Shown here one piece after another: positions 11,448 to 63,919 of a stretch of DNA of 64,000 bases; the stretch's first letter is position 1; every line of letters starts with the position of its first letter. The notes below the pieces were generated by a model. It made no database searches and was not told the origin of the DNA. It worked only from the letters and a program-made list of their open reading frames with translations. A program made the position numbers and the translations under genes. Location of the stretch: positions 61,324,019-61,388,018 of the forward strand of contig CM049306.1 in assembly GCA_026874595.1 (NCBI GenBank), read 5' to 3'. This DNA is from Sipunculus nudus (taxonomy: Eukaryota > Annelida > Sipuncula > Golfingiida > Sipunculidae).

Positions 11448-11455
11448 TATATAAG
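11448..11455 (+). promoter_or_regulatory. TATA box of gene A
   Basis: TATATAAG lies 80 bp before the ATG at 11528. The same octamer, or a close variant, stands 78, 71 and 83 bp before the start codons of genes B, C and D. Confidence 0.65.
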
Positions 11456-11527
11456 AAATATAATTTCCTTTTTCCTTTCAATTAAACCCTTTAACTGTTG
11501 TTAACGACTGCAGTCACAAAACAAAAA

Positions 11528-13919
11528 ATGTGTAAGTATTCTTCACATTTATCTTATTATTATTAATTATTATTTATTATTGATTTTTAAAGATATATAT
11601 ATATATACAGCATGGCCTGTTAAGAAAACATTCTGTGTCCTTTCTATTTGGTTTTGTCCGGCCACGCTAGACAATGCAAAAGAGCAAATTTCCTATCAAC
11701 AAGGTAATTTGTTTTGTGTTTAAGGCGGCATTCTAGCAAACAGGAATTTCAATTCATTCTGGTAATACCCCGAAGACTAATCCGTATTTCCTACAGACTT
11801 TTGCAGATTTCGTCCTGAACACAGGAACATTAGACTACCTTGACATTTATCAACAGTTTCAGCAGATTTCTCAGCAAAAACTTGCGAGTAGGAAAATTTG
11901 TCCATTTGTGCAACTTAGATGTGGGAAATTTTCATAATAAATCACACCAGCACACTTGACAATGACATTCTGCATGTCCATACTATTCTGTTTACTTTAT
12001 TACAGCCAGGTTTACTCTGGTTCTTCTCTCTGTCTGCTGTGGTCTCATCAATCTGTCAGCTGTCCATGGACAACGTGAAGACTGCCTCGGGCTTATCGAC
12101 GACATTGATTATGAAGTACAACAATACGTAAGTACTAATCACAATTCAGTAGTTGGGCTTTGTTTAAAGAATACAGCTGATTTTCACCAAAAAATTTTTG
12201 AAATTTCTATATCCGTTTACGAGAGTTAACACTATTTTTGCTAATAAAAAACTTTTCGTAATTTTAAAGATTTATTTATTGAGGACGCGTATATATTGTG
12301 CATCTATATTGAATGAGTATGTATAATATTTGAGCAGGTTGTGATAAGTTGCTTTTTCAGCTTTTTATTGATTAAATTAATTGAATTGACACACTATCCA
12401 AAAGAGTGGATATTAATTAATATTTGTATTTATTTAAATGAATATTTGAAATATAAGGTAAAATATTATCCTTTTCTTTTATCTGCAACATTAAAATAAT
12501 TATTTTTATAAACAAATGATGGAATATTACAGTGTACCATCCACCGGTCAGTTATCACTCTGGAGAATGCCTGCTCTGCTAATCTGACCAAATATCGAGC
12601 ACCTGCAGCAATACAAGAACAAATAATTTACCCCAACACAACAACATTAAAGGTTTGTATAAACCCTGGCAATGTAAAAGGCAGTGCAAAAGAACATGCT
12701 TTGATCTTGAAAATTAAAATTTAGGTAAACAGTTAGTAAACTACTCAGTCTTCTTTTGATTTAACTGAATTAATGAATGTCTGTCATAAATTCTAGCAAA
12801 GAATAGAGGATGACGTGTCCAATTATGATATATTTGTTATAATAATAAGGGGTCACGAAACGTATTATGCCAAAAAGTTATTTCAATAATAATAACTTTT
12901 TAACATGTTTTAAAGATTTCTTTTCACTTGCATAAGTAGAACTTATTAATATTGCGAGTTTGACAATAAAAGCAAAAAAAAAAAGCTCATATATCAAGTG
13001 ACAACTTGATGGCGCTGACAAACTACAGATGACTTGACGGGAATAGTACTTAAAACAATAAAACATAGATACATAAGAAATAGGATATGATGATCTATAA
13101 CTGATTGTATTAGGAATATTTTTCTGATTGTTCGGGTCGGTTGTTATTTCAGGAGGCATGGAGAGTCCTGAACAAACTGAAAACCTATAGTGTCACAGCG
13201 AGTCGTATGTGCTTCCGTCCAGGAAACAAAAGCAAAGATCCGGATATAAACTTCTGCACCACACACGAACTGATTGGTCACTATTTGAATAACATGCAGC
13301 AAATTCTGGTAACGAATGAATTTTTCTCCTAAAACGGTTGCATCATTTAACATTTGCTATTTTGTTATTAGCAGACTGAATTTTTTGGTATGTTAGAATA
13401 TCTGTCAGTCAAAATGTAACATGAGCTGTATATATGTCTCTGTGTTTACCATTTATTAATTTGTTTACTATCAATATAGAAATTTAAAACGTGGTATTTT
13501 TAAACGAAATATGAATTTAAAAATCAGTTTAAAAATTTAGCTAAACGTTTGTTTCTGTCTTTTACTCTGTTTTAATAATCCAAAAAGAACAGTTTTATTC
13601 AAAATAATGTATCGTTATTGACAAGTGCAAATTAAAAAAAATACCTTTAAACGTTTTTCCAAATTTTAATAAATTTCCGGATGAGATTTTAAGCAGATAC
13701 AAGACGTGATTATTACAGCTCTTTCTGACTGTCCTTCAGAACTGTAATTATTTTATTATTATATTTTCACAGTGCTTCAGGCAGGATTTCTATGAAGAAG
13801 AGTCCACAGAACAGCAACTCAGCACTTTTAACATAAGCACTGTATCCCAGCGCGCTACACATTATGTTGTAACCATGCGACAACTTTTAAAGGTCATTCA
13901 CTTAGCCCTAAAGAAGTAG
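11528..13919 (+). CDS. Gene A: secreted helical cytokine-like protein, 182 aa
   Basis: Five exons: 11528-11531, 12006-12127, 12533-12652, 13153-13308 and 13773-13919, all with GT-AG introns. Exon 1 is only ATG plus one base (phase 1); the other introns are phase 0. Every exon joins in frame and the protein ends at TAG 13917-13919. Residues 1-23 form a signal peptide (MSRFTLVLLSVCCG..., predicted cut after VHG). The mature chain starts QREDC followed by a first helix. Exon 3 opens with Cys and has a second Cys after LENA, plus a likely N-glycosylation site (NLT). Exon 4 codes two helical blocks around a Cys-flanked loop. Exon 5 opens with Cys, has an NIS site and ends in a basic amphipathic helix. 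Size, phase pattern and helix order fit long-chain class I cytokines (IL-6 type). There is no identity-level match, so the function, a secreted immune or growth signal, is inferred. ATTAAA at 13984 may be the poly(A) signal. Confidence 0.78.
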
Positions 13920-14169
13920 AGTGCTTGGCAAAGAAAACGTTACAAAAAAGCAGCATTACGGTGTTATTGACGACTGATTTACAATTAAAGTTTACTCAGG
14001 ATATTTTATTATATTTTGTAATATAGAGAAAATCGTTTTAAATATCAGCTCAGTTTAATTATCTATTTCTGTTTTTAACTATTAATTATACAATATAACA
14101 GCGAAATTAGAATCTATAGGATCTCTTCTGTTGTGATATTGTTGAACCTGAGGGAAATGTATGGTTTCA

Positions 14170-14770
14170 TATGTCTGTTTTAATGCGAGTTGGTGGAAAC
14201 GACCTCTTGTTTACTTTTCTCTCTGACTTTTTATCGTGTCACTTTCATTCTTTCTTCATTGCGTTATTTTCTTACGTGTTCTCCTTTCTCTTTGGTTTGC
14301 TTTCTATCATTTTTGGCGCTCTTGTTTCCTCGTCGTCTTCTTGTGATATTCTCCTTGGCGTTCTTTCATTTTTTATCACTCCCTGTATTCCTCTCTCTCG
14401 CTGGTTACCCCTTCTTTTAGGCTCTTCTTTATTCCTTCCCGTTATTTCTCTCCCTCTCTCTGGTTTCCGTACTGTCTGGCTTTCTCCTTTCTCTACTGGA
14501 TTTCCTTAGATTCTTTCCCTCTGCCTTGCTGGTTTATCTCTGGCTTCTTCCTTTATCTTTTACTTCCCCTTTTCTGTCTTGATTTACTTTTTCTCTCAGA
14601 CTTCCCTGTTTTTCTCTGAATTCCTTGTTTTTCTGTGAATCTACCTTTTCCTCTTCTTCCGTCTGTCTGAGTGTTCATTGTATCTTCCTCCGTTCAGGCA
14701 TTTTTTTACTTTTCTTTTAACTTTCTCCCTTACTTTCTATGTTGGTTTCTTGTTTTTTTTAGCATCTCTC
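14170..14770 (+). repeat. Pyrimidine-rich (C+T) tract of about 600 bp
   Basis: The plus strand is overwhelmingly C and T ('TTTCTCTCTGACTTTTTATC', 'TTCCTCTCTCTCGCTGG' and so on), with diverged repeats of 'TTTCTCTGA(C/A)TTCC'. The two open frames over it (from 14171 and 14190) are low-complexity artefacts, not genes. It lies 250 bp after gene A. Confidence 0.8.
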
Positions 14771-15637: not shown

Positions 15638-15678
<41 letters not shown>

Positions 15679-15792
15679 CTTGGCTTTTATAATCAATCGT
15701 CCTTCATTAGGATGTGAGGGGTCAGATTTTATTACTGGTAATAGTAAATAAAGACAACCAATGGCGATCCAGGAAGCAACACACACACACAT

Positions 15793-15823
<31 letters not shown>

Positions 15824-17465
15824 TTATTTATAAAGCAATGCAAATATAAGAAATGCCTTATTGGTTTTCATGTATAAGGTTTTATTCATAAGGTTACGCC
15901 TCGTGAATTAGACAAGGGTTATGGTTATAAATACAACCACGTGACCGCGTGGCTGACTCAAACATAAATGACCACGTGGTGGTTTTGTTCATTAAGATCC
16001 TCATGTAGTTGAGAACAGGCCTGGTTACCCACGTTATGCTTCAGTACGAGTCCACGTATATCCGGGTACGGTATAGTTATAACTTCTGATCAGGACGTTG
16101 AAAGAGGCTTTAGCATTTAATTATACCATATACAATCTGAAACAGTATACACCAGCAACCGACTATTGGAATTATTGATAAAATGGCGATTTTCTATAGA
16201 CTAATACATATATATATATATATATATGTGTGAATATATATTCTTTCAAATGTCGATACGTCGATATGGTTGCCGATACGCGTTGTATACTGCATTTATC
16301 ATATCGAGGATAAAACAATGACTGCCATTAAATATTGATACAAGCCTAACAATAGCTATAATCTTAAATACTTGTACAGCTATAGCTACATTTTTTTTGT
16401 TATTTTGGCTCAATATTTGCTCAATTTTCAACACTTTTTGATTCGAAGACACAAGAAAATTCTAGAGGCTAACAGTCATGATGATCCAATAGGACAATTG
16501 ATACAAGCGATATCCTGTAATTTCTTATTATGAAATGCGCAGCTGACAGAGTGTTGAGAAAAACGTGAAGAAACCTGAAAATGGAAACTGAAATTATGAT
16601 CTTGAAATCGCTATGTACAAAAGCAAAATTTTATCCCTATACATTTTATCCCTATATGGTGAGGGGGACATGTCCCCCCCCCCCAAAAAAAACCCCCAAG
16701 GCCCATGATTGCTGACGTTCCTCGTTATAGATGAAATCTATACACATATTACATATTGCTGCCATTTAATTATTTTTTTAATTCTGTGATCGTAGCAGGG
16801 CACGTTTCCCTTTATAATCCACCATTTTACCTTTACCTGATTAAGTTTTTGCTCAATTTTTCGAGGTGTTTTTTTATACCGTTCAAAGAAGGCAGGAAAA
16901 TGTTATTGATTCATGGATTGGTATTCCCGGAATAACAACAACTATGTAATTTCATGACATGAAAACAGTCCATGATTTTCCCCGACAAAATACAAAGGAA
17001 CGATGGGAAGGGGGTGGGGTGCAAAGGGCTTGACACAAAATCGGAATTTGAATATTCAGTACTTTTATTGAATAAATACGGTTAAAGAAAAAGGTTTGGA
17101 AAATTCTGCCCACTTATTACGTATCTTAAACTATTTATCAAACGACAAATTGGGCACATCCTTTGAAATTATTACCTATCCATTTCTACATTTCATCAAT
17201 TTCTACCAAGGTATATTAGGACTAGTTTACCCTAAAATATCCATATGCTTTCTTGAAATGACGTTATATATAAAATAAGGATTTCTTTAATCAGTTGTTT
17301 TTATCAACTAATATTTTTTTCTTTGTAGAAATACAGAACATATAGATATTATGTTGTATTATAAGAAAGTAAAAACATGTATTATCAGAGCTTTATTCAG
17401 AAAATGGTTTAAAAAGAAAAATCGGGCGAATCGTCAATATGTAATGCGTATCGAATTGAGTGTAT
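14771..17465. other. Intergenic region with G tract and TA microsatellites
   Basis: It contains a 16-base G tract at 14964-14979 that follows 'GGCGTATCCAGAATATGAGG' and is followed by CA, TA repeats at 15633-15677, 15793-15823 and 16208-16227, and AT-rich sequence. No supported gene was seen. Confidence 0.6.
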
Positions 17466-17469
17466 CGCA

Positions 17470-17721
17470 ATGCGTATTGTACGTGAATTGGCAGACCGAG
17501 ACCAAGCCCTAGTAAAAGTATATAAGAAAGGAGAAACAGATTTATTACAAGTGCCAATTTACGAGCTGGGGGCTGTTCCCGATATTTTAAAAAGTAATTT
17601 CATATCCTTGAAATATGTATCAGCGCGCGTACATGCTGATAACCAGAGAATGTGTCACCTTTGCCAAGAGCAGATTATTTATCGAATATTTCACGTATTA
17701 ATAGGGTCAATGGGTGCTTAA
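17470..17721 (+). CDS. Hypothetical 83-codon open frame
   Basis: An ATG-initiated frame runs 83 codons with mixed, non-repetitive codons and a C-x2-C pair near the end (MCHLCQEQ). I do not recognise it and see no flanking exons or promoter. It could be a retrocopy fragment or a chance frame. Confidence 0.15.
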   Translation: MRIVRELADRDQALVKVYKKGETDLLQVPIYELGAVPDILKSNFISLKYVSARVHADNQRMCHLCQEQIIYRIFHVLIGSMGA

Positions 17722-20978: not shown

Positions 20979-20986
20979 TATAAATA
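20979..20986 (+). promoter_or_regulatory. TATA box of gene B
   Basis: TATAAATA lies 78 bp before the ATG at 21057, matching the 71-83 bp spacing of genes A, C and D. Confidence 0.55.
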
Positions 20987-21056: not shown

Positions 21057-24000
21057 ATGCAGCTTTCCATCGCCAAAGGTTGGTAGTTTTTGTAAATATC
21101 ATAGATGCGATGATATATTTTGCAATGCTGTTCATAGTTACAGCTGATATTCATGGTTTTACAAAATATACGGGAATAATGATCATGATAATATTGGAAA
21201 GATAATATCTATGATCAAACCGTGAATATCGAACTCAGTTTGTATTCTTAAAACTCGTTCTGCAACACGTGGTAACTGGCGATCAAGATCACTTTCGCGA
21301 TCCAGGCAGGAGCATTGAAAATTTAAGGTGTCCTTACGATAGGGACCAAGTTTTCAAGACACCCGATTGTTTGCGTTTCCTTACGTTTCTAGTTTTTTTT
21401 TCTATCAGAGTTGTTTTGCTTTTTCGTTATGTTTTCTTGACTTTTACGTTTGCGATACTGAACGTTTCTGGCGTTGTATTATATTAGGGTTGTTGTGCTA
21501 TTATGTTAACGTTTTCCTGACGTCTGCTCCCGATAGTTTGCGTTTCCTTGTGCTTCTAGGCTTTTTTAACTTGCGATGTTAAGCTCTTTTTGTGCGTTTT
21601 CTTAACGTTTACCTGTGATTGCACGAACTACTTTGAGCAGGTACAAAATCTGTCAACACATCGGTTCCCTGTCCCAAGTGTCACGCATTTTCTGTTTTCT
21701 GTTTAAGTAGGACGTCCACTTAATTTATAATGCAGCCCTCAGTATATGGCTGCCATTCGACAGGACTATATTCACGGATGTAGTTTCAAGGTTTAAGGTT
21801 GCATCCTCGGAAGAAAAAACCTTCCTTAAAAAGCAAACTTTAAACTTGTTTTAAATTCTTTGGGACCCGATAAGATGTATAACACTTTAAACCTAGTGTT
21901 CTTTCTTCTGGTACATGCAAGTATTGATGAAATGCACTGATGAAAAATATTATTTTATATAAAAAAGTTAAACTTGTTTAAAAGTGTGCACATGGAGAAA
22001 GCCACTTTTCGGTTGGCTAATATTAAGGCAGATTGCACTAACTCAAAACAGCTTTTTTTCTTCATCATATTTCTTTCTGTTCAAAATGAAAATGCTATAC
22101 TTTAAAGCAACACATTAGTTTTGGTTTTAATTTGTTCTGTTGATAGTCACAATTTGTTCACTCTTTTGTCTTTAAATGCATAGCTATGGATAGAGGAAAA
22201 TATTAAGGGGCTAGATGCAAAAGCGTATAGTGGGAATTTAAATTATTTGTAAGCGTTACTTATTACGGATTCTCTGTGTGTGCGTGTGTCTGTGTGTGAG
22301 ATAGAGAGATACTCACGTAAGATGTAACGGGGTTTTTTTTTTAGCCGATAAAAATTCTGATCGTATGGGCAAAAACTGTGTATATTTCAAAACTTTATTA
22401 AAATGTGATGTTTGCATCAAACCTGTATCTCATGTGGGAATGCATAATTGTTTATTTGAAATATATCTTAAAAGAGCTATAAAGGAGTTACCGTAATTTT
22501 AAACCGTAATATGGTGTTACTTAATAGTCTATTTCCACAAAACAGAATAACAATGGATAAAAGTTTTACTTTCTGTGCCACATGCAAATTCAATTAATAA
22601 ATAATATTACCTGTTTTTATGGGAAAATATTATTTCCATATAAAATCCCTTGTTCCACGTGATAACAACACTCCCACGACATTTAGTAATCCAAGGTGCG
22701 TTTGTTTACTTTATCAATGAAACATAGCTTGAACTGAGTGTTAAAGCTTTAATAAACAACCACGGAAGATCCGCAGCATACTAACACATAATTAATAAAA
22801 TGTTGGGGTTTTTATCAATTTATAGTCTTGGCCTAAATTGGGTAGCTTGATCACAGAGATGCTCTTTAAAACTTATTCCTCTGTCAGACGGTGTTGAAAT
22901 CCATGCTTATTACTCGAGATAGGGATATATTCTTAATGAAGATCCTAACTTAAAAGGAAGAGGCACAAATTGAGCTTTCAATTAAATTTATTAATTGTGA
23001 AACTTACTTTCGGTAAAACTACGTTTACATTTAGTTTCGATGTTAAGGTATAAAATGCACCCACTGTTAATGTGTTTATACCACGACTACAATTAAACAA
23101 AGCATGTTTATCTCAAAAGGTAAGACAACCGAACAGGGTATGTGATGGTTGACGTCTTTTATTTTCTTAAATTTCTATAGTTCTTCTACTGCTTGTATAC
23201 TATTCTGTGACTTATAACCCCTCAATCAGGGTCGAATTCTATATGGTAAAACTATATATTTTGCTTTATATATACACAGACCCTTGAAAAGCCATTGAAA
23301 CTTAATTTTGAAATGTTCGGTAATCACCTGAGCATTTGAGCAATGGAAGCATATACCAGGAATATCCACATTACAAAGCGACATTTGAACAGGTTTAATG
23401 GTTTTAATGATTTAAATAGCTCCAGTCGTAAAAAAAAGAACAAAGCTTTATACTAAGCGCTTTGTTAATTTTATTCTTACGTAAAATATGTTCCTCTTAT
23501 CCTTAGAATGATTGCCTGACATCCAAGTTACTATAACCTCGACAACATATACATGTACCATTAATATATAGATCTATGTATATTTATTCTGTACAGCCAT
23601 GCATGGTTGTATGATAGATAAAAGTATACTTAAACAGTATAATAACAATCATGACCTATTAAACGTGTTATTGTTGAATGCTTCAGTTGACCCGATTGAT
23701 AAAATTTGATTAGCAAGTGCTTTTAGCGTACCTCGGGGGCCGCGCTGGATGTACTGTATGTTTATTGAGAATTTTTACGTACAGTGTATTTAACCCTTTA
23801 CTGTTTACATTTATTTAAGATTTCCGACAAATTCTGACACTATTTATATTTACACTAACAGCCATATCTTTTCAAGCTTTTTTTGTATCTTTATCAAATT
23901 TTCAACGGTTCCCACTAAGAGGGTTTGCTGAAGATTATTGAAAATCATTGAAACTTAGAAGTAATATGCAAAATTTTTGTCCTGAAAGAATACATATCAT

Positions 24001-27000
24001 GGCATTCTAGTTGCCCATTTAGAGTGCTCTTTAGTGGCTTGTAAACAGTAAAGGGTTAAATGGCAAATTGTATGTAAAGGAGTATGGGCTGACATGCAGT
24101 GGCATGTGAAGTCTCCTTTATAAGTCACGAAAGAAAAGCTTTGCACTCATATGGGTCAAACTTATGCAACTCTTGATGTACGCGTGATCGATGATACATA
24201 TAGGGTACTCCAGATTTTGGCAAGGGGGTAGGGGGGGGGGGGACACCATGACGCGATCCAAGGTGGGTGAAATTTAAAAAAAAATTCCTTAATCTAAAAT
24301 TTTGTTGAATATATATTTGGAGGGGTGTGGGGGGGGGGGGGGGCAATTATCTATATACCGACCTTCCGATCATATGAACAAGAAACTACAATAGAACATT
24401 TCCTTTCCTCGATTTTGTTTTATAGGAGAGTGCTTTGGACTTCTGCGTACTGTTTTTTTTTTCTTCAAGCTGCTGGAGCCATATAGCCTTAAATCCAGCT
24501 ATTCACCTACCCTGTTTGAAAAAGTTCCAATAACGCCTCTCTGAACTTGTTTTTCTGATAGATTACGCAGCAATGTTGACAAACAGAAAAATCATGTAAC
24601 CTAAGGCGGCTGACTGCTTATATGGGGAAGTTGAGAGATCATTACTTGTAAAAACGCCCTTTGCAAAACTTTGGTTCGTCTGACTTGCCAAAGTTTGATC
24701 TTGTTGAATTTGTATGGATTGTTTTAGAAGGTCCCCACACGTTATTAACACGTGAATATAAACAAGCGAACAGTTGGATTAGCGTTTCCTACCAATTTTC
24801 ATGAAAGGGTAAATGATTTATCTTTTGTTGGCAGACGTCAGATTTCGGAATCCTTTAATTGTCTGTCGAATTATTTACCATAACGAATCCAATATATATT
24901 TTAGTATTTCATCATTTTTCAAACAACAGACAGAATTATGATGTGATTGGTTGTTTAAAGTGTGACGTCATAGGGCGTTTTTTGTAATATATTCACAAAT
25001 ATGCCTTGAGTAACACGTGAACCTCATTGGGGATACTCCCAACTGACTGTACTCATTACATATTAGACCGGTTTTCCCACCAGAAGATGGGATTGGCTTC
25101 ATTACATTTTGGGGTTATATCCTACAACTGCCTGTTACTTATTACGATACAATTGATCATGTCTAACCATGTCGAATATGTTCATATAAAGGGATGTATT
25201 AACAAATTCATTTTTTGGTGATTATTTTTTTTTTTTTTTTTTTGGGGGGGGGGGGCAACCTTAAATTATGAGCAAACTATATTAGCAACTAAGATAATCT
25301 ATAAAATATTGTACTTTGAGGTTATTCGACGTATGCAGGAACTGAATGATAGATTCAGGGCTTATCCTCGCCCTCAGCAGTTTAGAAAGTACTAAGTATT
25401 TTATTATGTAATTATGGTTTATTAAACACAAATATTACAAATATCGGGATAATTAATTTGCTCAAAATATTGTCGGGGACATAATATCTCTGCCCCCCCC
25501 CCCCCTTTCTCTGCCCCCTGCTTCCTACACCATTGATATATACCAGGCTTTGATTTTTTCAGTTTCAGCACCACAGCGACTTCATCTGATTTTATTGCTG
25601 ACGTTGAATATTTCACACACCGCCGCAAAGTATGATCCGTGCGAAAATCTGCCCTTACTGTACAAGAAGCTGTATAAACAAGCAAGGCGGGTCTTCAACA
25701 AGACGGTACGGTGTACTGGTATACATCTCACATACCGGTTAATACGTTTACTCTTGTAGTATTCTGTTGTATTATTCAGTGATTAATTTATGGCATATTT
25801 TTTCGTATTATATCAGTGAACTTTATGATAATAGCTGGGAAGTGTATGTTGTTATTCTGTTTTTATTTTCAATCACCTTTCTTTCTTTTTTAAATTAGGA
25901 AAGGAAATATTATATTATATATATATATACGGGTCGCATCCCGTGAAACAGTCTGTTGTGAATTAACAGTGTTGTTTTTCTTCAGAGTTATATATATATA
26001 TATATATATAGCACTTATGATGAATGCCATTACAGTGTCAAGATGTGTTTAACCTCCTTCCTGAACAAGTCACCCCTATCAGGAGGCTCGAGGCATGTGA
26101 GCAGTTCTCCAGGAATTATATCCAACATCATCGGCTCCCCATTCCAGTGGCGCCCTCTTACGAGAACTGCGAGGTGCGGTATAAATCTTTACGGAAACAT
26201 GTTAATATGAACAAGGTTATGCCGGACTATATTGGATTATGTTTATCATTACGGAAAGAAAATATAGGTTTTTAAATAAAGATACTAAGAAAACGATTAA
26301 AAAAGAAACGAAAACTCCCTGAAAGATCATATTGTAACATCAGATTTAATTTGAAGATTGGTATTAATTTGTTTTAAATCAGTTGTTCAGATATTCAAAC
26401 GAGTTGATGAATATTAAGGGAATCATATTAATATTAAAATTAAAATCATACAGATTATAATATTTTTGCTGACCTTAGTTTAAAGAGTGATGCAACAAAA
26501 TACAAATGTTCAGAATATTTTACGGTAATTTAATGCTCTTTTATCAATTTATATACTTCAGGTAGCCCTATCCGAGGTGAGCTGCAAATTCCAGGAATAC
26601 AGCCAAGTGTTCCGTCAGATGGTTGAGGGAGGGGACAGGTCTAAGCGTGATGGTTGCCCCAGCTGTCACCAAGGGTGCTGGTCTCCTTACAGCAAACTGT
26701 ACTGCGAGCTGAAAAACATTACGCTGTTCGACCTCAGACGCATTCTTCTTGTTGTAAGTGTACCTTATAATATAAGTATGAGTCCCTATATTTTATAGGG
26801 GCAAAATGTCACTACTGATTTTCCTCTAAGAGATTAATGTAGATATAGACACATGTAAACCAGAAGAGGACCAGACACAGTTTCTTTTATTTGTGTCGAT
26901 TCTGCAAAATAATGTATCATTCATAATGCTTATCCTGTGAAAGTATTACATACCGCTGCTATACTAATGCGACAGTTATATGATGATTAGAAGATGCTGT

Positions 27001-27352
27001 CTGGGTGGAACTAAGTCAGAATGCTTTATTTTATTAAATGTGTTTTTACCTATTATAGTTAGTGTCTGTTCTTTCACGAATATTTATTACATAAATCAAA
27101 TATCGTGAAGACTTATAAACATGTTTATTGTTACGTCATCTCGTTTCATGATTGAACCTACAGATGCCCATGTGCACGCAGATGCCAGAAACCGTGTGCA
27201 GCTTCAACGCCAGCCAGCCAGCCGACCACAGCCTGATGAACGAGTGTGAACGTCATCAACACGCCCTGGCCGCGGCCTGGTCCATGTTTGAACAAGCCAA
27301 ACTTACTAAAGAGACCATGATCAAGACTTGCTATACTTCACTGAACGGTTAA
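21057..27352 (+). CDS. Gene B: Cys-rich secreted helical cytokine-like protein, 225 aa
   Basis: Exons 21057-21078 (22 nt, phase 1), 25569-25705, 26036-26173, 26562-26753 and 27164-27352; the last three introns are phase 0. An alternative exon 2 acceptor six bases upstream (25563) keeps the frame and adds two residues. The signal peptide spans exons 1-2 (MQLSIAK then PQRLHLILLLTLNIS). A Cys (YDPC) precedes the first basic helix. Exon 3 opens with Cys and contains RRLEAC. Exon 4 starts with a helix containing SCKFQEYSQVFRQM, then carries a Cys-dense loop (GCPSCHQGC) not seen in genes A or C, and an NIT glycosylation site. Exon 5 has four Cys and a long Ala/Glu-rich helix ending KTCYTSLNG. There are 13 Cys in the mature chain. 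Exon 1 is 4.5 kb away and is the least certain part; its TATA spacing and phase support it. AATAAA at 27792 is a possible poly(A) signal. Confidence 0.75.
21090..25548. other. Long intron 1 of gene B
   Basis: The intron is AT-rich and holds G tracts at 24231-24242, 24329-24343 and 25244-25255, a C tract at 25493-25505 and no coding exon that I can support. A pyrimidine-rich segment at 21360-21620 repeats 'TTTGCGTTTCCTT' twice. Confidence 0.45.
25930..25994 (+). repeat. 65-bp dispersed repeat, copy 1 (partner at 37054-37113)
   Basis: 'GGGTCGCATCCCGTGAAA' through 'AGTGTTGTTTTTCTTCAGAG' is shared with 37054-37113. Both copies sit directly beside TA microsatellites. This copy is in intron 2 of gene B, about 40 bp before exon 3. 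Confidence 0.8.
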
Positions 27353-31484: not shown

Positions 31485-31612
31485 CGTTGGTTCTCCGGTT
31501 GGTTCTTGCTGTGTATCTACTCTGGGAAATTCCCGTTAACACTGATGCTTCGAACGGCAGAGATGAGTGTTCTGTTGATACATTACGTTATATGTGGCGC
31601 ATAGATAACCTG
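31485..31612 (+). pseudogene. Orphan signal-peptide/first-helix exon of the cytokine-like family
   Basis: A 128-nt exon-like block with a phase-1 acceptor (AG at 31483-31484) and a phase-0 donor (CTG|GTACGT at 31612). It codes LVLRLVLAVYLLWEIPVNT, then NGRDEC and a helix RYMWRIDNL. The G-R-D-E-C start parallels G-Q-R-E-D-C in gene A, and its phases and length match exon 2 of all family members. No first exon, and no exons 3-5, are recognisable on this strand before gene C's opposite-strand exons. It is most likely a relic of a lost copy. A functional gene with unrecognised exons remains possible. Confidence 0.55.
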
Positions 31613-31920
31613 GTACGTACCCCAGGTTCGTCCAACTTGCTTGCCTTGTGTGTGTCCCCGGACCGAGTTAAAATAAAGGATCATATAAATATATATAAAT
31701 TTAATATATATATATATATCCCCTTTGCTAAATGCCTGGGAGTGGTTGTATACACCCCATCCCAACTGTATTGACGGGCCCGGTGTAAGTGTATGTGTGT
31801 GTGAGAGAGAGGGAGGGAGGGAGAGAGAAATTTTTTAAAGGTGTACCTTTAACTGATCATATAAGCTATATTTTCTCTGTATAACTGAAATTTTGAGTCC
31901 AAATGACGGAACGTTGTACT

Positions 31921-32917: not shown

Positions 32918-35900
32918 TCAGTTAGCACCATTTATTCCCTGTAGCCTGTTGATGTAGCAGACAGTGTACACGCTTCTTTTGAATATTTCGGCCTGACGGG
33001 CAAGACGATACAGCATTTGCATGATTATAAAGATTTTTTCAGATCTACTCTTCCTCTGAAACTTCTTCGCAAGTTTTGATCTTCCTTTTTTGGTCTGTAA
33101 AAAGGAAACACTACATTTAAGGAACAATTCTGTGATATACAAGGACAAACCCAATCACAAACTACCTAAACCTTTGTTAATGGAACGGAAAGTCTCACAA
33201 AATATATTTTCACAATCCCTCAACGTTCCTAGTTCCATAGAATTTGCAAAGAAATTAAGACTGTTGTTATAACTTTCTTGAACTTTTATACTATAAATGG
33301 TGGTGTATTAAATATGGCTAATTACATGGCAATTACTATGAATTAGAACGAGCACAGTGTTCGTAAAACAGTAAAATTGAATGTTATATAATAGTTAGCA
33401 ATCATTGTAATAACATGGCGCTTTCCTGATTGTCGTTTTCAAGCCAACTTTACTTTAAAAAATAATGAAACGCCTTAAGTTTCCTTTAAGAGAACTGCCG
33501 CCCTAGTGATGTAATCACGAGTCAAAAATATGTTTGTGAATAAATTGAAACCAAATTATTCTTAATATCTCAACGACATAGGGCAGGGCTTAAATATTAG
33601 ATCATTTGTATAGATAAATGTTGCCCAGCCTCATTTGACATATATTGTATTCCGATGACAAAATTATCGGGTTAGTTTTGAAAGTAACCGGAAAATTACA
33701 GCAAGGACTTAACAATGTTGCAAAGAAATCAGAACCACCTATCTCAGACCAGCTGAACTAAGGGTGCTTCCAAGGTGAACCCGGAAACCATGCAAGCGTT
33801 GCCTATGGTAATTGCTCATTCACTACACTTTAACCTTTTGAAATCAGTTCGGCCAAGTCAAAACAATATGCTTGTCAGGTGTTGCACGGCGTGATCGAGG
33901 TCAAATATCCTTAATTAACTCTCTGATTAAACCGGGTGATCGGCATAATGTTGCGCATTTTCTCATATGTTTATTAAATTATAGCAGTTACTAAATTTCT
34001 AGTAAATTTACGGGTAAGTCAAACAGCCTCTCAACCACGGGGCTGTGTTTACATATGTGTAAGGAGCAAGTTTACACTATGTATATTTGTTCGTTTTCCA
34101 TTTGTTTACTCCCGCCAAATTCACCTACCGCCAAATACAACTCGATATTCGCCATCTGTTCGGTGTGGGTTTCTTGACTGTGCTCACCAGGCTACCAAAA
34201 TCATTTTCGTATAAATATGGTTAAAAAGCATTAAATGTGTCCTCAGTGGACCTTTACTGCGAGCATGCGCACTAACCGTAATTATTGTCTGCTGTGTCTA
34301 GTAAAATGAGCTGACATTGCCAATTTGGCAAGTGATGCTAAATACAACGCTGTTGAAGTTGGATTTTTTAATGTTATCAATTGTGATAATACAAAACAAG
34401 TCTTTCTTTTGTTGATGTAGCTGAACAAAATTACTGGAAATCACCGATAGATGTCGCTAGAGAAATAAGAAAGAAAAAAACTCTTTACCAAAATATGCAG
34501 CCTGAACAATTCACCACTATCACCTACCATTAACTCCTGTAGCCCTTGCGTTTTGAGAGATGAATGGTATGATTTGAGTTTCAATATTTACCTTGCGATG
34601 ACCAAGAAGCAGATTTTTCGTCACGCGTTGAATACGATGAGCGTCCGGAATTACTGTCACGTTCCCCCTGTTCTTGGTGGCGTTAATTATCACATTTAGG
34701 TAAAGATGGAAGTTCATGAGATCATTCATTACACACATGGGAGCCTTGATGTAAAAAAATAGAAAAATATTAAAACTTATTGTCTCACAAAAAATGGTAT
34801 GCCGGTTTGGAAAATGATACAAAACTCTATTTTTAATCTGCAGATAAGACTATAATGATGGTTGATATAAACAATACTTAAGATGATACAAAATCAATAA
34901 ATGCCGGAAATTTTATTCTTCAGGAGGACGTAATTCTGATTTCTGACTTTGAAAAATTAAAATATTTTCTTCAGATAATAAAATAAGGTGGATAAATTAG
35001 TTAGTTGTTTTCCAGGGCGATAATATCATATGTCTGATTGCTTATTAGGTTGTTGGTTTGTCTGCTAGCAGGAGCACGTAAAAACAATTAGACCAGTTTA
35101 CCCAATTTCCAGGAAGCTTTATTGAGTCAGGGAAGATTTATTTACATTTTGCTTCTGATCCAGAGAAAACTTGAAGGGGGGGGGGGGGGGGGCGGGGGGG
35201 GTGTCCGGTAGTATTGTTAAGCTGGCGGTGGTATGCGCATCTGAACATCCATATAGTTTCTCATGATTCTGACCCCAGCGACATTAAGTTCAACGTTACC
35301 CTCCACTTTACTAGCTTAAACCAGTTTAACTTCTTCCAGTGATCGATTGCATACATCTGTTACGTTTTAAATCAGCGGCATCTACAAGGCCTTAATAACA
35401 GGAACAGGCACTTTTTCTTTATTCAAGGGTATTTAAAAAATGATAATGAACAGTCACTGTAACAGAAATTCCTTCCTCCTTTTATGGCTATGAAATGACG
35501 AAAATCAATAAAACTTATCAATAAGATATAACGTTAACTTTGAGAAAAAAATATGAATTTTCAAAATCTCTCTTGGAAAGATAAATAGTTTTTTTTATAC
35601 TATTGTGAAAATCTCTGAAGTAATAATACTACAGTATTAGGTAAAATCACTATTGTATTCATCTTTCCGAAACCTAAACTGGTCTGTACAAAATTAAAGA
35701 CGATACTTTGTATGATATTAAACTACTTATTACCCATGTCGTGTTGGCTGTAACGTCTGGTAACTTGAATTCTAGCCTATGACTTTTATTTAAATTGTCG
35801 CACTTTTCAAGACGTGACGCATTAGTAGACGAACTCGGAGGAAGATCCTGGTGGTGTGAATTACACTGCAAAAAATATTTATCATTATATCAGTGTTGAT

Positions 35901-36948
35901 TACTGATCAAGTCATGAGCTCAGGTGTTAGATCTATTTGGTAATTACTCATCGTGATGGGATCTTATTGCAATCCTCAAAATGTTATATTTGTGTTTATA
36001 TATATATAAATGGCCAGCACTGAAATGATAATAAGTGAAACATTTGAAACTCATTTGGGTTGTGAGGTATAATCGGTCTTCATATCAGTCATGATTATCA
36101 AGTGAACGTAATTAAGCGTGAGCATATGCCGTTAATAAGAAATCCCGTGATTTCCCTTTGATATTATCATATAACAATAAGTAGTAACTTACGAAGGATC
36201 TGTACGCCTCCTTTGATAGGTTGTGGAGTTCCCTTGCTTTAGCATAACGGTTACACGGATTGGGACATGCGTCCGTTACGACGAGGATAAGGGCCAAGAG
36301 AAAAACAACTTGGAACAAGAAAATAGAAAAACATTATATTATTCATAATGCACCCTGTAGTAAATATTAAACAAAATTTAATCAAGATTTAAACTAAGCC
36401 AAATTCATGGCAGTACCATACTTTTCCTAAGTTCTTAAGTCTGACTTTGGATACAAAAATAAACAAACAAGGTTATCGTGAATCTATATATATTTCAGAG
36501 ATTATTCTGAAAGGTTTCTATTGAAAAGCGGTGCCCTACAGTTAGAGTTGTGCCGCATATCCTGATATAATATTTCTCCAAAAATCTGCACACACACTAA
36601 AAAAGGGCACCCAGACATTTGAAAACACGTAAAAATATCCAACAATGTTGCTCTTTTTGGCTTTTAAATTTGAACACTATATTTTTCCTTAAAACATAAA
36701 TACTGCAAGTAAATATATCCATTAGAAAGAAAGGTAGGAATCTGTCGAGTAAAATTTTCATAAAATATATAGTATATACCCATCGTCTTGGTTCCCAGAG
36801 GTCAAACAGATAATAAGCATGATATATATAGACAAACATGCTAGTCATGACTAGTCTGATGTATAGTGTTAAACTCAGTTTATATGTTCCTTATGCATTG
36901 GCGGCGAACCCAGATTTTCATAGGGGGGGGGGGGGCAATAGTAGACCA

Positions 36949-37230: not shown

Positions 37231-38119
37231 AAGGGTCGTACCCTCACCCAAATGGCAGGGGGCAGTAAGCAGATTTTAGGGGGAAATCCCCAAAGGGGGA
37301 GGGTGTGGAACATTTTGAAAAACTGTATGTATACTGCAGTCTCCATGCAACATGTTGCATTCTGGTTTATGTTTGCTGTCATTTATTGTTCAATGCTTAC
37401 TAAGTACAACAGAACCTCTTTGAAAAGAGATTGTTATTTGCAATGGATGCATTTTAAGACAGAATATCAACTTTGCAATATCTTTTTTTTTGCACGTCAA
37501 ACCTCAGGCTGCGGCACTGTATATATGGTACTCCAAGTACTGCGGGCGAGAAGCGCCAGAGCGGAGGTAGATAAATATATGTGAGAGTGCTAAAACTCTA
37601 TAATAAAATAGTGGATGTTTTTATACCCGTCATTTTGTTTGGGGGGGGGGGGGGGGGCAGCCTCCTATACCCTTATAATCTCATAATATTACAATAATGT
37701 AGAAGTTACACCTGTAATGTTTGTCTTTACATGTTTCTTATAATTAAACATATTTCCAGTTTTCCATGTATCGACGTAAATACTTCTTTGGGTCCTGATG
37801 TTGTTTATGTATGTTACATATGTTATTAATGTACAGAGAATATTTATATTAGCCGAAGAGGTTACTTTGTAATCTTGTTTACAAACATAATTAAATATGA
37901 TAAAATTAAAATATGAATTAACAGATAATCACAATCTTTCACAGAAAATGACATATGTCATAGTGTGTTATAATATTCATTAAGAATTGGATTTTTGTAT
38001 GTTTCTAGCTGTATTTGTTTGAAACCTTGAGATGCATATATGAGATAAATCTCAGACTGGAGAAAACAAGCAGGTACTTGGTAATGAGCATATCTGTTTT
38101 GATCCTTACCTTTCAGCAT
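32918..38119 (-). CDS. Gene C: secreted helical cytokine-like protein, 195 aa
   Basis: Minus-strand exons 38119-38110 (ATG CTG AAA G, phase 1), 36308-36193, 35865-35734, 34744-34592 and 33094-32918; the last three introns are phase 0 and all sites are GT-AG. The signal peptide is MLKVVFLLALILVVTDA, followed by CPNPC and a helix ending EAYRSF. Exon 3 opens with Cys, holds SRLEKC and three or more N-glycosylation sequons (NAS, NKS, NTT). Exon 4 contains MCVMNDLMNFHLYLNVII, resembling the B-helix of IL-6 in pattern (Cys, then an aromatic/aliphatic amphipathic stretch), plus sequons NAT and NVT. Exon 5 is strongly basic, then a long amphipathic helix ending YTVCYINRLQ. There are six mature Cys. 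The gene runs convergently toward gene B. Receptor and role are not shown by sequence; a secreted cytokine is an inference from architecture. Confidence 0.8.
36951..37025. repeat. TA microsatellite
   Basis: About 37 TA units within intron 1 of gene C, just after a 13-base G tract (36923-36935) that follows 'GGCGAACCCAGATTTTCATA'. Confidence 0.97.
37054..37113 (+). repeat. 65-bp dispersed repeat, copy 2
   Basis: 'GGGTCGCATCCCGTGAAATA' through 'TTGTTTTTCTTCAGAGTTAT' matches 25930-25994. It is flanked by TA microsatellites on both sides (to 37025 and from 37176) and lies in intron 1 of gene C. Confidence 0.8.
37176..37233. repeat. TA microsatellite
   Basis: TA run with single-base interruptions. 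Confidence 0.95.
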
Positions 38120-38182: not shown

Positions 38183-38190
38183 CTTATATA
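38183..38190 (-). promoter_or_regulatory. TATA box of gene C
   Basis: TATATAAG on the minus strand lies 71 bp before the ATG at 38119; it is identical to the octamer of gene A. Confidence 0.65.
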
Positions 38191-46028: not shown

Positions 46029-46033
46029 GTTTC

Positions 46034-46048
46034 TGTCAGAAGTGGGAT
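46034..46048 (+). promoter_or_regulatory. Primer binding site, probably tRNA-Leu
   Basis: TGTCAGAAGTGGGAT lies 5 bases after the LTR and complements the 3' acceptor/T-arm of animal tRNA-Leu(CAA), as I recall it. The three bases that should pair with CCA do not match well. Confidence 0.55.
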
Positions 46049-46215
46049 AGTCCAGATTACCGGATAGTCCAGATTACCGGATTGTCCAGATAACCTGATT
46101 GTCCAGATTTACCAGATTGTCCAGATTACTGGATGTGTCCAGATTTGCAGATGTTCAGATTAAAGGATGTACAGATTAGTGGATGTCCAGATAACCAGAT
46201 GTCAGGATTGCCATA
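46047..46215 (+). repeat. Leader tandem repeat of the gypsy element
   Basis: About nine diverged units of 'GTCCAGATTACCGGAT' (15-18 bp) lie immediately after the primer binding site. The following leader to 47999 is AT-rich and non-coding. Confidence 0.85.
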
Positions 46216-52224: not shown

Positions 52225-52409
52225 TCGTTGAGATACGACAATGAGTGTCAGTGTATAAGTCGTGTTTCGCATTCAAGTAATTTGTTTGTAATATGTCGCC
52301 AAATCGTAGTTTTGTCTTCTCTCTGGATCCTGGTTCTTTCTAGTGAATCCAGCGATCTCATGAGGAAATTATTTTGTCGATTTCTGTCCAGAGGACCGGA
52401 CAGTGATAT

Positions 52410-52417
52410 GAGAGGGG
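52410..52417 (+). promoter_or_regulatory. Polypurine tract before 3' LTR
   Basis: GAGAGGGG precedes the 3' LTR by four bases (TGTG). Since tracts usually abut the LTR, the true LTR start may be 'TGTGTGTGACC' at 52418. Confidence 0.6.
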
Positions 52418-52421
52418 TGTG

Positions 52422-53744
52422 TGTGACCGTCTCGCTGGATTCGGACAAACCCCCGTATATTTGGTTATTTTTGTACTGTGCTGCCACCTTGTTTAGGAGC
52501 CGGTTGTCAGTCGCCAGTCTACTAATTCTGCCAACCAGCGCCATCTGCTGGGGAGTTTCTGTGAAATGACCCTTTTTTGTGAACGCTCAGCTCGTTGAGA
52601 CGTCTCCTGCTGTTTTGCCGCTCTAGAACAAAGGTTTTACGCCGACTTGCGGTAAGAATGACTTTTTCCAGGCGATCTTCGTATTGCAAGCTATTTCCAG
52701 TCATTGTTTTGATATGTCCAATTTGTTGAATGACGGTGTGTCAGCTGGCACCCAGATTCATGATGTTCACAAGTTTGGAACTGCGTAGTTAAACCGCCAT
52801 TTTGTGATTGGATTGCAGGCTGCAGAATGTTGCACTTGACGATAGTCGTGCCTCGCCTTAATGACGTCCAGTGGTCCCACCCTTAGAAACCTGCTAACCG
52901 CGGTTCGTAATATTTGATACAATTCTAATCTTTCATGGTGTATGTATGGGGTATGATGAGACGTGACGTCATCAGATATGCTTAAAGGTATATTTCAGCT
53001 AGGTCTTGTAGTGTAATTAGAACATTTGGTAGATTTATGTCATGATGACCTAGATACTCCTTAATTAGTGATACTCTTAAATGGTCTGGTCATATGTAAT
53101 ATATGGTCTATGAAACATAACCTGGTGTACTATATGGTATCATTCCAACAACTCAGTATTGTTTAATACAGATGTGTAAGTATTTAAGACTGTTTTAAGT
53201 GTACTTAGTATTGTCTATTAATGTATTTTGTTTAGGTGGACTAATTTGGGATTAGTTCTCATTGTCACTCTTATGTCAAGGTTACATGGGTGTATTTGTT
53301 TCGCACATTGTGGATGGATAGTAATAGTTGAATCTCTATGAGCATTATTGTGAGATAACATATATATATCACATATATTGCAGTATAACCCCATTACCTT
53401 GCCACCCATTCTGTTTGTTTTAAGCTCAACATCTGTACAGTCTAACCCAGTTGTTTGACCTGCTTTGTTTATTAGTAGTTATCTTGCCCCAATGAAGTTT
53501 TCCTGTACAGTAACAGAGTTATATGAAGATAACAATAGGATATATCTTGAATTATATGGAATCTGAGGTCACACTACTTTGCTTAAGGATACTACAGTGA
53601 CTCGGTAAATGTTTTATTTCTTTATTATCATATGTTTATCAGGGTTTCCTGTGCTGTCCTGAGTTTTATGTAACCAATACGACAGAATAAATCTTTGTCA
53701 ACCTTTGCTGGTTGTCTGTCTCAGTCCATGGGGATTCGGCCACA
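52422..53744 (+). repeat. 3' LTR of gypsy element (1323 bp)
   Basis: About 99% identical to 44705-46028; by eye I count seven substitutions and one single-base indel. The AATAAA copy lies at 53686-53691. Confidence 0.95.
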
Positions 53745-59006: not shown

Positions 59007-59892
59007 GCAAATCTTCCTCCAGGACATTCTCCTCCTCACCCTCCTCAGCACCTCCTGCATGTCAATCTTCCTCCAGCACTTTGTCCTCCTCAACCTCCTC
59101 AGCACCTCCTGCATGTCAATCTTCCTCCAGCACATTCTCCTCTCCACACCATTCTAAGCACCTTCTGCATGTCAATCTTCCTCCAGAACTTTGTCCTTTT
59201 CACCCTCCTCAGCACCTCCTTTATGTCAATCTTCCTCCAGCAGATTCTCCTCCTCACACTCCTCAGCACCTCCTGCATGTCAATCTTCCTCAAGCACAAT
59301 GTCCTCCTCACACCATTCTAAGCACCTTCTGCATGTCAATCTTCCTCCAGCACTTTGTCCTTTTCACCCTCCTCAGCACCTCCTGCATGTCAATCTTCCT
59401 CCGGCACATTCTCCTCCTAACCCTCCTCTGCACCTCCTGCATGTCAATCTTCCTCCAGCACATTCTCCTCCTCACACCATTCTAAGCACCTTCTGCATGT
59501 CAATCTTCCTCCAGCACTTTGTCCTTTTCACCCTCCTCAGCACCTCCTGCATGTCAATCTTCCTCCGGCACATTCTCCTCCTCATCCTCCTCAGCACCTC
59601 CTGCATGTCAATCTTCCTCCGGCACATTCTCCTCCTCATCCTCCTCAGCACCTCCTGCATGTCAATCTTCCTCCAGCACATTCTCCTCCTAACCCTCCTC
59701 TGCACCTCCTGCATGTCAATCTTCCTCCAGCACATTCTCCTCCTCACACCATTCTAAGCACCTTCTGCATGTCAATCTTCCTCCAGCACTTTGTCCTTTT
59801 CACCCTCCTCAGCACCTCCTGCATGTCAATTCTTTTCCGGAACTTTCTGCTCCTTTCACTCTCTTCAGCACCACCTGCATGTCAATCTTCCA
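59007..59892. repeat. 54-bp minisatellite, about 16 units
   Basis: The unit 'CCTCCTGCATGTCAATCTTC' plus 'CTCCAGCACATTCTCCTCCTCACCCTCCTCAGCA' has a 54-bp period, a multiple of three, so frames stay open on both strands. Plus frames read as C-M-S-I-F-L-Q-H-type repeats, and the minus frame as basic 18-residue repeats (RKIDMQEVLRR). A longer period appears through a variant unit with 'CACCATTCTAAGCACCTTC' at about 59150, 59310, 59480 and 59755. I regard the frames as by-products of the array. Confidence 0.9.
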
Positions 59893-60850: not shown

Positions 60851-60852
60851 AT

Positions 60853-62350: not shown

Positions 62351-63094
62351 ATATGGTATATAAGAATACTTTACATATGTATATTTATACTCTATATGTT
62401 ATATTTACACATTATAAACACATTGTATGATATAACGTACCCTATATAATAGCATATTTTAGTAATATAGGGCATGTGAAAGAAATAAAGCTACGTGTCC
62501 TCTTTTTTTCAAATAAAAATTTAATTATTTCCATAAATGTATGAATTTCGGGTAATTAGTATTGTCCCTTTGTGGCCAAATTACAAACATAATACCAGAA
62601 CAAGGGGTCTTAAACGCATTATCTGCACCAAATAAACGCCCCCTACAGCGGGATGATATTATCTGAATATTTCCGGGTGTCAAGTTGAAGGACTCAGCTT
62701 CCCGGATATTATGGGATAGAACATCCTGAAGGAGGGGTCATGAACTACTGGTTTGTTACTGTCAGAGAGTTACTGGTCACTGGGCCGTCATGGATTGAGT
62801 GGAATAGATCCTTCTTCCTTCAATAAGGGCCGATCCTTCCCTTTGTAAAGCCGTAAACCCACATGCCAATCATAAACGTCCATAACTCTCTATGTGTCTG
62901 GCCTCAGTTCCTGGTTATACATCTTCAGCTTGCAGCATCATAATTATCCCCTAGATAATACATCCTTTTACCTAGATATTGTTTAATATTGGTTTTAATT
63001 AAATAAGGAAGGGCAATTTAGGAACCTTTTCTTTTATTCAAAACCAAACCGTAAGTTCTACTCCAAATATCTTACTTTCGAAAATATTTGAAAC

Positions 63095-63102
63095 TATTTA
63101 AG
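63095..63102 (+). promoter_or_regulatory. TATA-like box of gene D
   Basis: TATTTAAG lies 83 bp before the ATG at 63178, the same spacing class as genes A-C. Confidence 0.45.
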
Positions 63103-63177
63103 AGGGGCATAATTTGGCTATTGCAGCATTTTATCAACAGATTCTGCATAAGCCTACTGATGCATAAACGCAGATAT

Positions 63178-63919
63178 ATGATGAAAGGTAGGATAATCAA
63201 ACTTTAAATACAGGCGCAAAAAATAGCATTAATACTGCTATATAGTCATACAGTCTTAATAAACAGCCTGTTGCCATGCTGCAGGGAGAAAGAGGAGGAA
63301 AAATAAAGATAAGTTAAATCATGAAACACCGTCTAATATTACAAATGATTTAACATAGGTAAATGAACACACAATCGTATAATGTACACTTTAACTGTTC
63401 ACATGTAATACTGCAAACTTCCAATGATGAATTATCTCTATGTAGTTTATATGACAAAGTATGCTCCGTGTGCGTGATGGTCGACAAGTATAATTTTCTC
63501 TTAATGTGATTGTAACCACGAACACAATATGATAGTGGTGCATACTTGTATTATTAAACAGTTATTTAGATAAGCCTACCATGAATAATAATCACCATGT
63601 ATACTTTTCATGAAAATATATGGAGAATAATTTAAAAGCAGCAGCATATTTCAGTCATTTTTAACAATTAAAAAAAAATACAGCCACTAGATGGCGCTGG
63701 TTATTAATCTAGGTTTAACGTAGATGTTCGATGGCTTTATAAAATACGCTTTATTTTATAAATGAAAAATATCGAATACTTCTTTCAGAGAATGTGTTCA
63801 TCCTCACTGCCTTGGTGGTGGCGTATTCAGTTCTTGTCAGAGCAAAGCCAGACTTAGGAAAAAGCGTAGTGAAAGCGAAGGAGCTACGGAGTATAACGAA
63901 TACACTATACGATGAATAT
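63178..63919 (+). CDS. Gene D (5' part): secreted helical cytokine-like protein
   Basis: Exon 1 is 63178-63187 (ATG ATG AAA G, phase 1), almost the same as the 10-nt first exon of gene C (ATG CTG AAA G). Exon 2 is 63789-63919, with acceptor CTTTCAG and donor TAT|GTGAGT in phase 0. Together they code 47 residues: a signal peptide (MMKENVFILTALVVAYSVLV, ending near RA), then KPDLGKSVVKAKELRSITN and a helix ending TLYDEY. The segment VKAKELRSITNTLYDEY aligns without gaps to AKARELHNLSKEAYRSF of gene C, so the two are close paralogues in this helix. The Cys present after the signal peptide in the other members is absent here. Exons 3-5 should lie beyond the window end. Confidence 0.7.

What the first reader, a model, noticed from the sequence alone, without database searches (positions are those of the whole stretch)
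11448..63919. Cluster of undescribed five-exon helical cytokine-like genes
Three complete genes (A, B, C), one 5' partial gene (D) and two orphan exons in 52 kb encode small secreted, Cys-containing, glycosylated, helix-rich proteins. They share exon layout and Cys placement but little sequence identity, the usual state of fast-evolving immune ligands. No gene of this kind is obvious from single-frame reading because every exon is under 70 codons. If they are class I cytokines, they would be candidate ligands for molluscan gp130/domeless-type receptors.
Basis: partly seen in the sequence, partly recalled or inferred. Interest (0 to 1): 0.95.

Follow-up and report, generated by a model that had tools for sequence, protein, structure and literature searches.

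The report
Hidden helical cytokine-like gene cluster
Four small secreted-protein genes, which standard sequence searches do not recognise, are laid out like vertebrate immune-hormone (cytokine) genes such as G-CSF and IL-6, and could be a kind of ligand not yet reported in shellfish-type animals.

Summary
The genes are real. A (+), B (+) and C (-) are complete in the window. D (+) starts in it and is completed by the next 2 kb. Each has five coding exons, GT-AG introns in phases 1-0-0-0, a tiny first exon with a TATA-like box 71-86 bp upstream, a hydrophobic leader, 182-227 aa and N-glycosylation motifs. A has six relatives elsewhere (five on C9, one on C1) at 27-34% protein identity with matching exon borders; a tandem pair has dN/dS 0.47. 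C and D, and more weakly B and C, resemble each other. Pfam, NCBIfam and PDB sequence searches gave nothing significant. Exon 3 begins with a Cys codon after a phase-0 intron in all nine genes where it was found, as in G-CSF, and the exon layout fits the G-CSF/IL-6 type. I read them as class I-like helical cytokines, probably ligands of JAK-STAT receptors. The fold is not shown: AlphaFold on A alone (pLDDT 52.5) gave four main helices but no cytokine among the 50 Foldseek rows listed, and C failed. Receptor binding was not testable. A 2026 survey found no IL-6 in invertebrates and names only insect Upd and a C-type lectin as ligands.

The parts
11448..11453 (+). Gene A TATA-like box, 80 bp before the ATG
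11528..11531 (+). Gene A exon 1 (ATGT, 4 nt, ends phase 1)
   Evidence: inferred from TATA spacing, donor and frame; the scan preferred another exon 1
12006..12127 (+). Gene A exon 2: leader + helix A (phase 1 in, 0 out)
   Evidence: paralogous exon in P1-P4
12533..12652 (+). Gene A exon 3: begins with a Cys codon, 40 aa
   Evidence: a 120-nt exon also in P1-P4; the scan preferred another exon 3
13153..13308 (+). Gene A exon 4: helices B and C, 52 aa
   Evidence: helices (low confidence)
13773..13919 (+). Gene A exon 5: CD loop + helix D + stop (182 aa in all)
20979..20984 (+). Gene B TATA box, 78 bp before the ATG
21057..21078 (+). Gene B exon 1 (22 nt, ends phase 1)
   Evidence: the scan preferred another exon 1
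25563..25705 (+). Gene B exon 2: leader + helix A
   Evidence: an alternative acceptor at 25569
26036..26173 (+). Gene B exon 3: begins with a Cys codon
   Evidence: the scan preferred another exon 3
26562..26753 (+). Gene B exon 4
27164..27352 (+). Gene B exon 5 + stop (227 aa in all)
38185..38190 (-). Gene C TATA-like box, 71 bp before the ATG
38110..38119 (-). Gene C exon 1 (10 nt, ends phase 1)
36193..36308 (-). Gene C exon 2: leader + helix A
35734..35865 (-). Gene C exon 3: begins with a Cys codon
34592..34744 (-). Gene C exon 4
32918..33094 (-). Gene C exon 5 + stop (195 aa in all)
   Evidence: the scan preferred another exon 5
63095..63101 (+). Gene D TATA-like box (TATTTAA), 86 bp before the ATG at 63181, 83 before that at 63178
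63178..63187 (+). Gene D exon 1, ends phase 1 (189 aa from this ATG; 188 from 63181, 195 from 63160)
63789..63919 (+). Gene D exon 2: leader + helix A; exons 3-5 follow beyond the window at window-equivalent 64282-64389, 64713-64883 (acceptor could be 64719) and 65594-65743
31485..31612 (+). Possible orphan exon 2-like segment (weak)
   Evidence: overlaps a 19-bp tandem repeat

Best explanation
The cluster is a set of old, fast-diverging duplicates that encode secreted helical cytokines of the class I (G-CSF/IL-6-like, long-chain) type. Exon 1 gives the start codon and exon 2 the leader plus helix A. Exon 3 gives a Cys-opened AB loop, exon 4 helices B and C, and exon 5 the CD loop plus helix D. 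The proteins are secreted and N-glycosylated, fold with one or more AB-loop disulfides, and most likely dimerise a gp130/IL6R/Domeless-type receptor to switch on JAK-STAT. Shown: the genes, splice phases, the A family and the Cys placement. Inferred: fold, exact helix limits, disulfides, glycosylation, receptor and function.
For: Four genes with the same five-exon 1-0-0-0 structure, far above shuffles. A-family paralogs with matching exon borders at 27-34% identity; loose purifying selection in the pair P3/P4: dS 0.20, dN 0.094, ratio 0.47, no coding indel. Exon 3 opens with Cys in 9 of 9 genes whose exon 3 was found (A-D, P1-P5); of all candidate 0-0 exons of 90-150 nt in the region 10 of 187 start with Cys, real ones included. 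G-CSF isoform A carries three extra residues after Leu35 through alternative splicing (PMC3817114, passages); that Cys36 comes next is recalled. Human IL-6 and fish and mammalian G-CSF genes have five exons (PMC5165036, PMC6389648, passages); their phases 1-0-0-0 are recalled. Single-sequence model of A: main helices 2-39, 55-79, 93-119 and 132-158 of the mature chain, introns after residues 19, 59 and 111. STAT-domain matches in the genome.
Against: The fold model of A is weak (pLDDT 52.5, pTM 0.44). Its first helix runs to residue 39, 20 residues into exon 3, so 'exon 3 = AB loop' needs that low-confidence part (28-55 under 50) to be wrong. Foldseek: 0 of 242 matches at E<=0.001 and no cytokine in the 50 rows listed. 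The C model failed (pLDDT 45). No significant Pfam, NCBIfam or PDB match. A shares no detectable sequence with B, C or D. No transcripts. No receptor domain above cut-off; the JAK domain model found nothing, in the control genomes either.
Confidence: 0.68

Rival explanations
1. Secreted helical proteins of another kind, such as fast-evolving gamete-recognition (sperm lysin-like) or host-defence effectors, whose five-exon layout resembles cytokine genes by coincidence.
For: Strong divergence, small secreted helical make-up, clustering and a tandem pair with dN/dS 0.47 fit such proteins too; no cytokine match by sequence or by the weak fold model.
Against: Phases 1-0-0-0 plus Cys at codon 1 of exon 3 match the G-CSF type closely; the Pfam matches up to E 10 were all below cut-off and to unrelated families, best E 0.01, none to a lysin.
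Confidence: 0.18
2. Class II-type helical cytokines (IL-10/interferon-lambda-like) rather than class I.
For: Five exons; helices apparently split among exons.
Against: IL-10 family, IFNL1, IL-3 and IL-21 genes split no codon, i.e. all introns phase 0 (PMC2654155, passages); here intron 1 is phase 1 in all four genes. IFNL2/3 do have an extra phase-1 first exon, but then six exons (same passages).
Confidence: 0.08
3. A and the B/C/D group are two unrelated secreted families that happen to sit together; only one, or neither, is a cytokine. (This can overlap with the first rival.)
For: A against B, C, D is at chance level, whereas C-D and B-C are above it; A's relatives found lie mostly on C9.
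Against: Same exon number, phases, Cys at exon 3 codon 1, similar exon sizes and TATA spacing in both groups.
Confidence: 0.15
4. Artefact: chance open frames joined by hand.
For: Short exons; scan chains differ in part from the models; for B, C and D no paralog or transcript confirms the joins.
Against: Shuffles; for A, conserved paralogous exons elsewhere and dN/dS below 1 in the family; for B-D, the C-D and B-C similarity.
Confidence: 0.01

Closest known systems
G-CSF / IL-6 (vertebrate class I long-chain helical cytokines, Pfam IL6/GCSF/MGF)
   Same: Five exons; phases 1-0-0-0 (recalled for vertebrates); exon 3 opens with a Cys codon as in G-CSF (splice point after Leu35, PMC3817114; Cys36 recalled); small secreted proteins; exons split the helices in a like way (inferred).
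   Different: No sequence or HMM match; B is Cys-rich (13 Cys); fold and receptor not shown; host very probably an invertebrate.
Drosophila Unpaired (Upd1-3), ligands of Domeless
   Same: Proposed role: secreted ligand of a gp130-like receptor feeding JAK-STAT in an invertebrate.
   Different: No sequence or gene-structure comparison was made here.
IL-10 / interferon-lambda (class II helical cytokines)
   Same: Five exons dividing helices (PMC2654155, passages).
   Different: Their introns are all phase 0; here intron 1 is phase 1.

Membership tests
Class I helical cytokine superfamily (long-chain) | Secreted single-domain protein of about 150-230 aa with leader | tested here: met
   182, 227, 195 and 189 aa with a hydrophobic N-terminal segment; leader judged by hydropathy, not by SignalP
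Class I helical cytokine superfamily (long-chain) | Five exons, intron phases 1-0-0-0 (phases recalled; exon number from PMC6389648, PMC5165036) | tested here: met
   Four of four cluster genes; the three paralogs read in full, P2, P3, P4, likewise
Class I helical cytokine superfamily (long-chain) | Intron 2 just before a Cys codon after helix A, as in G-CSF | tested here: met
   9 of 9 genes with exon 3 found; reference from PMC3817114 plus recall
Class I helical cytokine superfamily (long-chain) | Up-up-down-down four-helix bundle | tested here: inconclusive
   A: four main helices, pLDDT 52.5, no cytokine in the 50 Foldseek rows shown; C: pLDDT 45, not searched; B and D not folded
Class I helical cytokine superfamily (long-chain) | Binds a class I receptor (WSXWS) and signals by JAK-STAT | not testable with these tools
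   STAT-domain matches found; no receptor domain above cut-off, without a positive control
Pfam IL-6/G-CSF family proper | Profile match | tested here: not met
   Not among matches at E up to 10; hence not filed as a member of that family
IL-10/interferon-lambda (class II) | No codon split by introns | tested here: not met
   Intron 1 is phase 1 in all four genes

The most novel reading that the evidence does not exclude
Class I helical cytokines exist in a bivalve-like invertebrate as at least two divergent gene families and descend from the same ancestral five-exon gene as vertebrate G-CSF/IL-6. The ligand-receptor-JAK-STAT axis would then predate the protostome-deuterostome split, and these would be the missing ligands of molluscan IL6R-like receptors.
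Probability: 0.5. Interest if true: 0.94.

Novelty: new variant of a known kind. Interest (0 to 1): 0.83.

Why it matters
A 2026 survey traces IL6R to Mollusca but finds IL-6 only in vertebrates, and suggests that the molluscan receptor module may use alternative ligands (PMC13203501, passages). It searched with BLAST at E<=1e-5 and >=30% identity, which would probably miss genes like these. An abstract seen in a listing says no endogenous ligand is known for CRLF3, a class 1 receptor of all major eumetazoan groups (PMC8063046). Candidate ligands with exon coordinates make both questions testable. The gene-structure signature (1-0-0-0 with Cys at exon 3 codon 1) may find such ligands where sequence search fails. 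Of my ten literature searches, six bore on earlier reports and four on gene structure. Searches returned no paper, and one search listed 10 of 466. No listing showed a report of such genes; the library holds open-licence papers only and no preprints.

Tried and rejected
Sequence routes to known cytokines failed: Pfam (only sub-threshold matches to unrelated families, best E 0.01), NCBIfam (none; a prokaryote library), PDB by profile (best E 0.29) and by sequence for D, C and B (best E 1.2, 0.88, none). Fold route: the alignment of A with its paralogs was not accepted, so A and C were folded alone; A's model is weak and C's unusable. Receptor: PF09240 gave one sub-threshold hit on C16; the 4 kb around it (L050) show no WSXWS in the strand read and no receptor-like frame, so I rejected it; PF09067 none. 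The 14 control genomes gave no hit above cut-off either, so these are weak negatives. JAK: PF17887 none, uninformative. Promoter motifs: two kappaB-like and three STAT-like sites in 4 kb upstream of the four genes, against about 0.5 and 1.4 expected from the regional density; not used as evidence. Sequence link between A and B/C/D: none. Weak genome hits of A, B and C that I looked into (L027, L028, L036, L037, L042-L044): no convincing exon of the expected kind over the match. The best, for B on C15 (L036; 48 residues, 40%), lies without convincing exon borders a little downstream of a frame that looks to me like the last exon of an eIF4G gene; left undecided. Further hits (for instance on C11, C12, C6) were not fetched. 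P7 on C9 (33.976 Mb) shows only an exon 5. No open exon 2 was found for P5; a frame that looks right holds a stop, so P5 may be broken; it was left as found.
Full report
WHAT IS THERE. The window is G000:C1:61324019-61388018 of a 1.43-Gb, 153-contig genome. A (+), B (+) and C (-) are complete, with 12 of 12 introns GT-AG and phases 1-0-0-0 in each. Coding exon lengths in nt: A 4/122/120/156/147, B 22/143/138/192/189, C 10/116/132/153/177. D has exon 2 in the window, a likely exon 1 ending at 63187 and exons 3-5 in the next 2 kb (L009). It encodes 189 aa from the ATG at 63178 and has the same phases. Each gene has a TATA-like box 71-86 bp before its ATG; N-X-S/T motifs number 5, 4, 6 and 1 and Cys 8, 13, 6 and 6 for A-D, leaders included.

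IS IT CHANCE? A mechanical scan for chains of five exons with phases 1-0-0-0 and a hydrophobic exon 2 over 163 kb, both strands, found five loci: B 30.0, D 22.9, A 22.4, C 20.8, and one at 11.9 outside the window. Over 292 second-order Markov shuffles the mean was 0.48 loci and the most in one shuffle was 5; 7 loci in all reached 20.8; 1 shuffle had four or more loci of any score. Ten first-order shuffles gave four loci, best 17.8. The thresholds were chosen after I had seen the genes. The scan's best chains differ from my models in A exons 1 and 3 and the 5' end of exon 5, B exons 1 and 3 and the 5' end of exon 2, C exon 5, and the starts of D exons 1 and 4. The scan therefore supports the loci rather than each splice site.

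A FAMILY, NOT A SINGLETON. With A as query the genome shows weak hits (E 0.1 to 6) whose ends fall near A's exon borders, clustered on C9 at 35.29-35.59 Mb, plus one at C1:104.80 Mb. With P2 as query, hits to P1 and P5 reach E 4e-8 and 2e-4, and A's exons come up at E 0.03 and 0.42. From the fetched DNA I read paralogs P1 and P2 (L045), P3 (L046), P4 (L047), P5 (L048) and P6 (L049). Against A the pieces aligned are 27-34% identical; in mature form A scores 38 and 37 standard deviations above shuffles with P2 and P3. P2, P3 and P4 read as complete five-exon 1-0-0-0 genes, with TATA motifs 66-76 bp before the ATGs chosen. P1 lacks exon 1 in the fetched DNA and has a weak exon 4 donor. Exons 2 and 3 were not found for P6, nor an open exon 2 for P5; P7 at C9:33.976 Mb shows exon 5 only. 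The pair P3/P4 has dS 0.20, dN 0.094, dN/dS 0.47 and no coding indel; the genomic stretches align at 82-86%, exons included. These are coding genes under loose purifying selection.

B, C, D. Besides themselves, B has two and C three weak hits in the genome at E<=10, D none. I inspected the five; none has a convincing exon of the expected kind over the match. The C15 hit for B stays undecided. C and D resemble each other beyond 4999 of 5000 shuffles and B and C beyond 4987 of 5000; B-D is at chance. BLASTP of C against D gives E=1e-4 for that single comparison, over 46 residues. A against B, C, D is at chance. So B, C and D look like old duplicates; A is tied to them by gene anatomy only.

WHAT IT IS. 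Three features point to class I helical cytokines. (1) Five exons with phases 1-0-0-0. The human IL-6 gene and G-CSF genes of carp, man and mouse have five exons (passages of PMC5165036 and PMC6389648); I recall their phases as 1-0-0-0, which no call shows. IL-10-family, IFNL1, IL-3 and IL-21 genes instead split no codon (passages of PMC2654155), which speaks against class II. That paper also used exon structure to place helical cytokines that BLAST could not. (2) Exon 3 opens with a Cys codon in 9 of 9 genes with exon 3 found (A-D, P1-P5). Among candidate 0-0 exons of 90-150 nt in the region 10 of 187 do so, real ones included. In G-CSF the alternative splice inserts residues after Leu35 (PMC3817114, passage), which puts the splice point just before Cys36 (the Cys recalled). 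(3) Single-sequence AlphaFold of mature A gives main helices 2-39, 55-79, 93-119 and 132-158 and a short one 44-49, with pLDDT under 50 at 28-55, 84-86, 88-91 and 111-132. Introns fall after residues 19, 59 and 111. So exon 4 holds helices B and C and exon 5 the CD loop and helix D. That exon 3 is mostly AB loop needs helix A to end earlier than the model draws it, in its least certain part. Long AB and CD loops and a short BC loop would suit an up-up-down-down bundle; this is inference.

AGAINST. The model of A is weak (pLDDT 52.5, pTM 0.44). Foldseek gave 242 matches at E<=10, none at E<=0.001; the 50 listed are designed bundles, bacterial receptors, gp41 constructs, kinases and the like, with no cytokine. 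C's model failed and was not searched. No sequence library recognises the proteins. Receptor domains PF09240 and PF09067 gave nothing above cut-off in an exon-by-exon search, a poor test for split domains and without a positive control. STAT-domain matches above cut-off are present (3). The JAK model found nothing, in the control genomes either, so it says nothing.

HOST. Not named.

KNOWN OR NEW. PMC13203501 (passages) reports IL-6 only in vertebrates, IL6R back to Mollusca, and Upd and an IL-like C-type lectin as invertebrate ligands. Its cut-offs would probably miss these genes. None of the listings of my ten literature searches showed a report of such genes. I do not file the proteins in the Pfam IL-6 family (profile test not met). 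I file them as class I-like helical cytokines by gene anatomy, with the fold test open.

Noticed in passing
window 44705-53744: LTR retrotransposon (Gypsy-type by eye) between genes C and D: LTRs 44705-46028 and 52422-53744 are 99.4% identical over 1324 columns, so the insertion looks recent; long open frames at 48240-52224.
   Followed up: partly
L045-L048 (C9:35.29-35.59 Mb) and L049 (C1:104.80 Mb): Second cluster of A-type genes, including the close pair P3/P4 and P1/P2 about 6 kb apart; P5 may be broken in exon 2.
   Followed up: yes
L051, around C9:33976248: A lone exon-5 copy of the A family with no upstream exons found in the fetched 4 kb.
   Followed up: partly
L036, match at C15:30544375-30544524: 48-residue stretch resembling gene B exon 4 (40% identity) without convincing exon borders, downstream of an eIF4G-like frame.
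   Followed up: partly
window 17413-17517: About 100 bp of this open frame is a dispersed repeat: 39 further copies at 82-86% identity among the 40 scored of 220 candidates.
   Followed up: no
window 2134-4150, 31919-32498, 59010-59891: Tandem arrays with 43-bp (47 copies), 41-bp (14 copies) and 54-bp (16 copies) units.
   Followed up: no
whole genome G000: Many C1q domains: 141 matches from 150 scored candidates.
   Followed up: no
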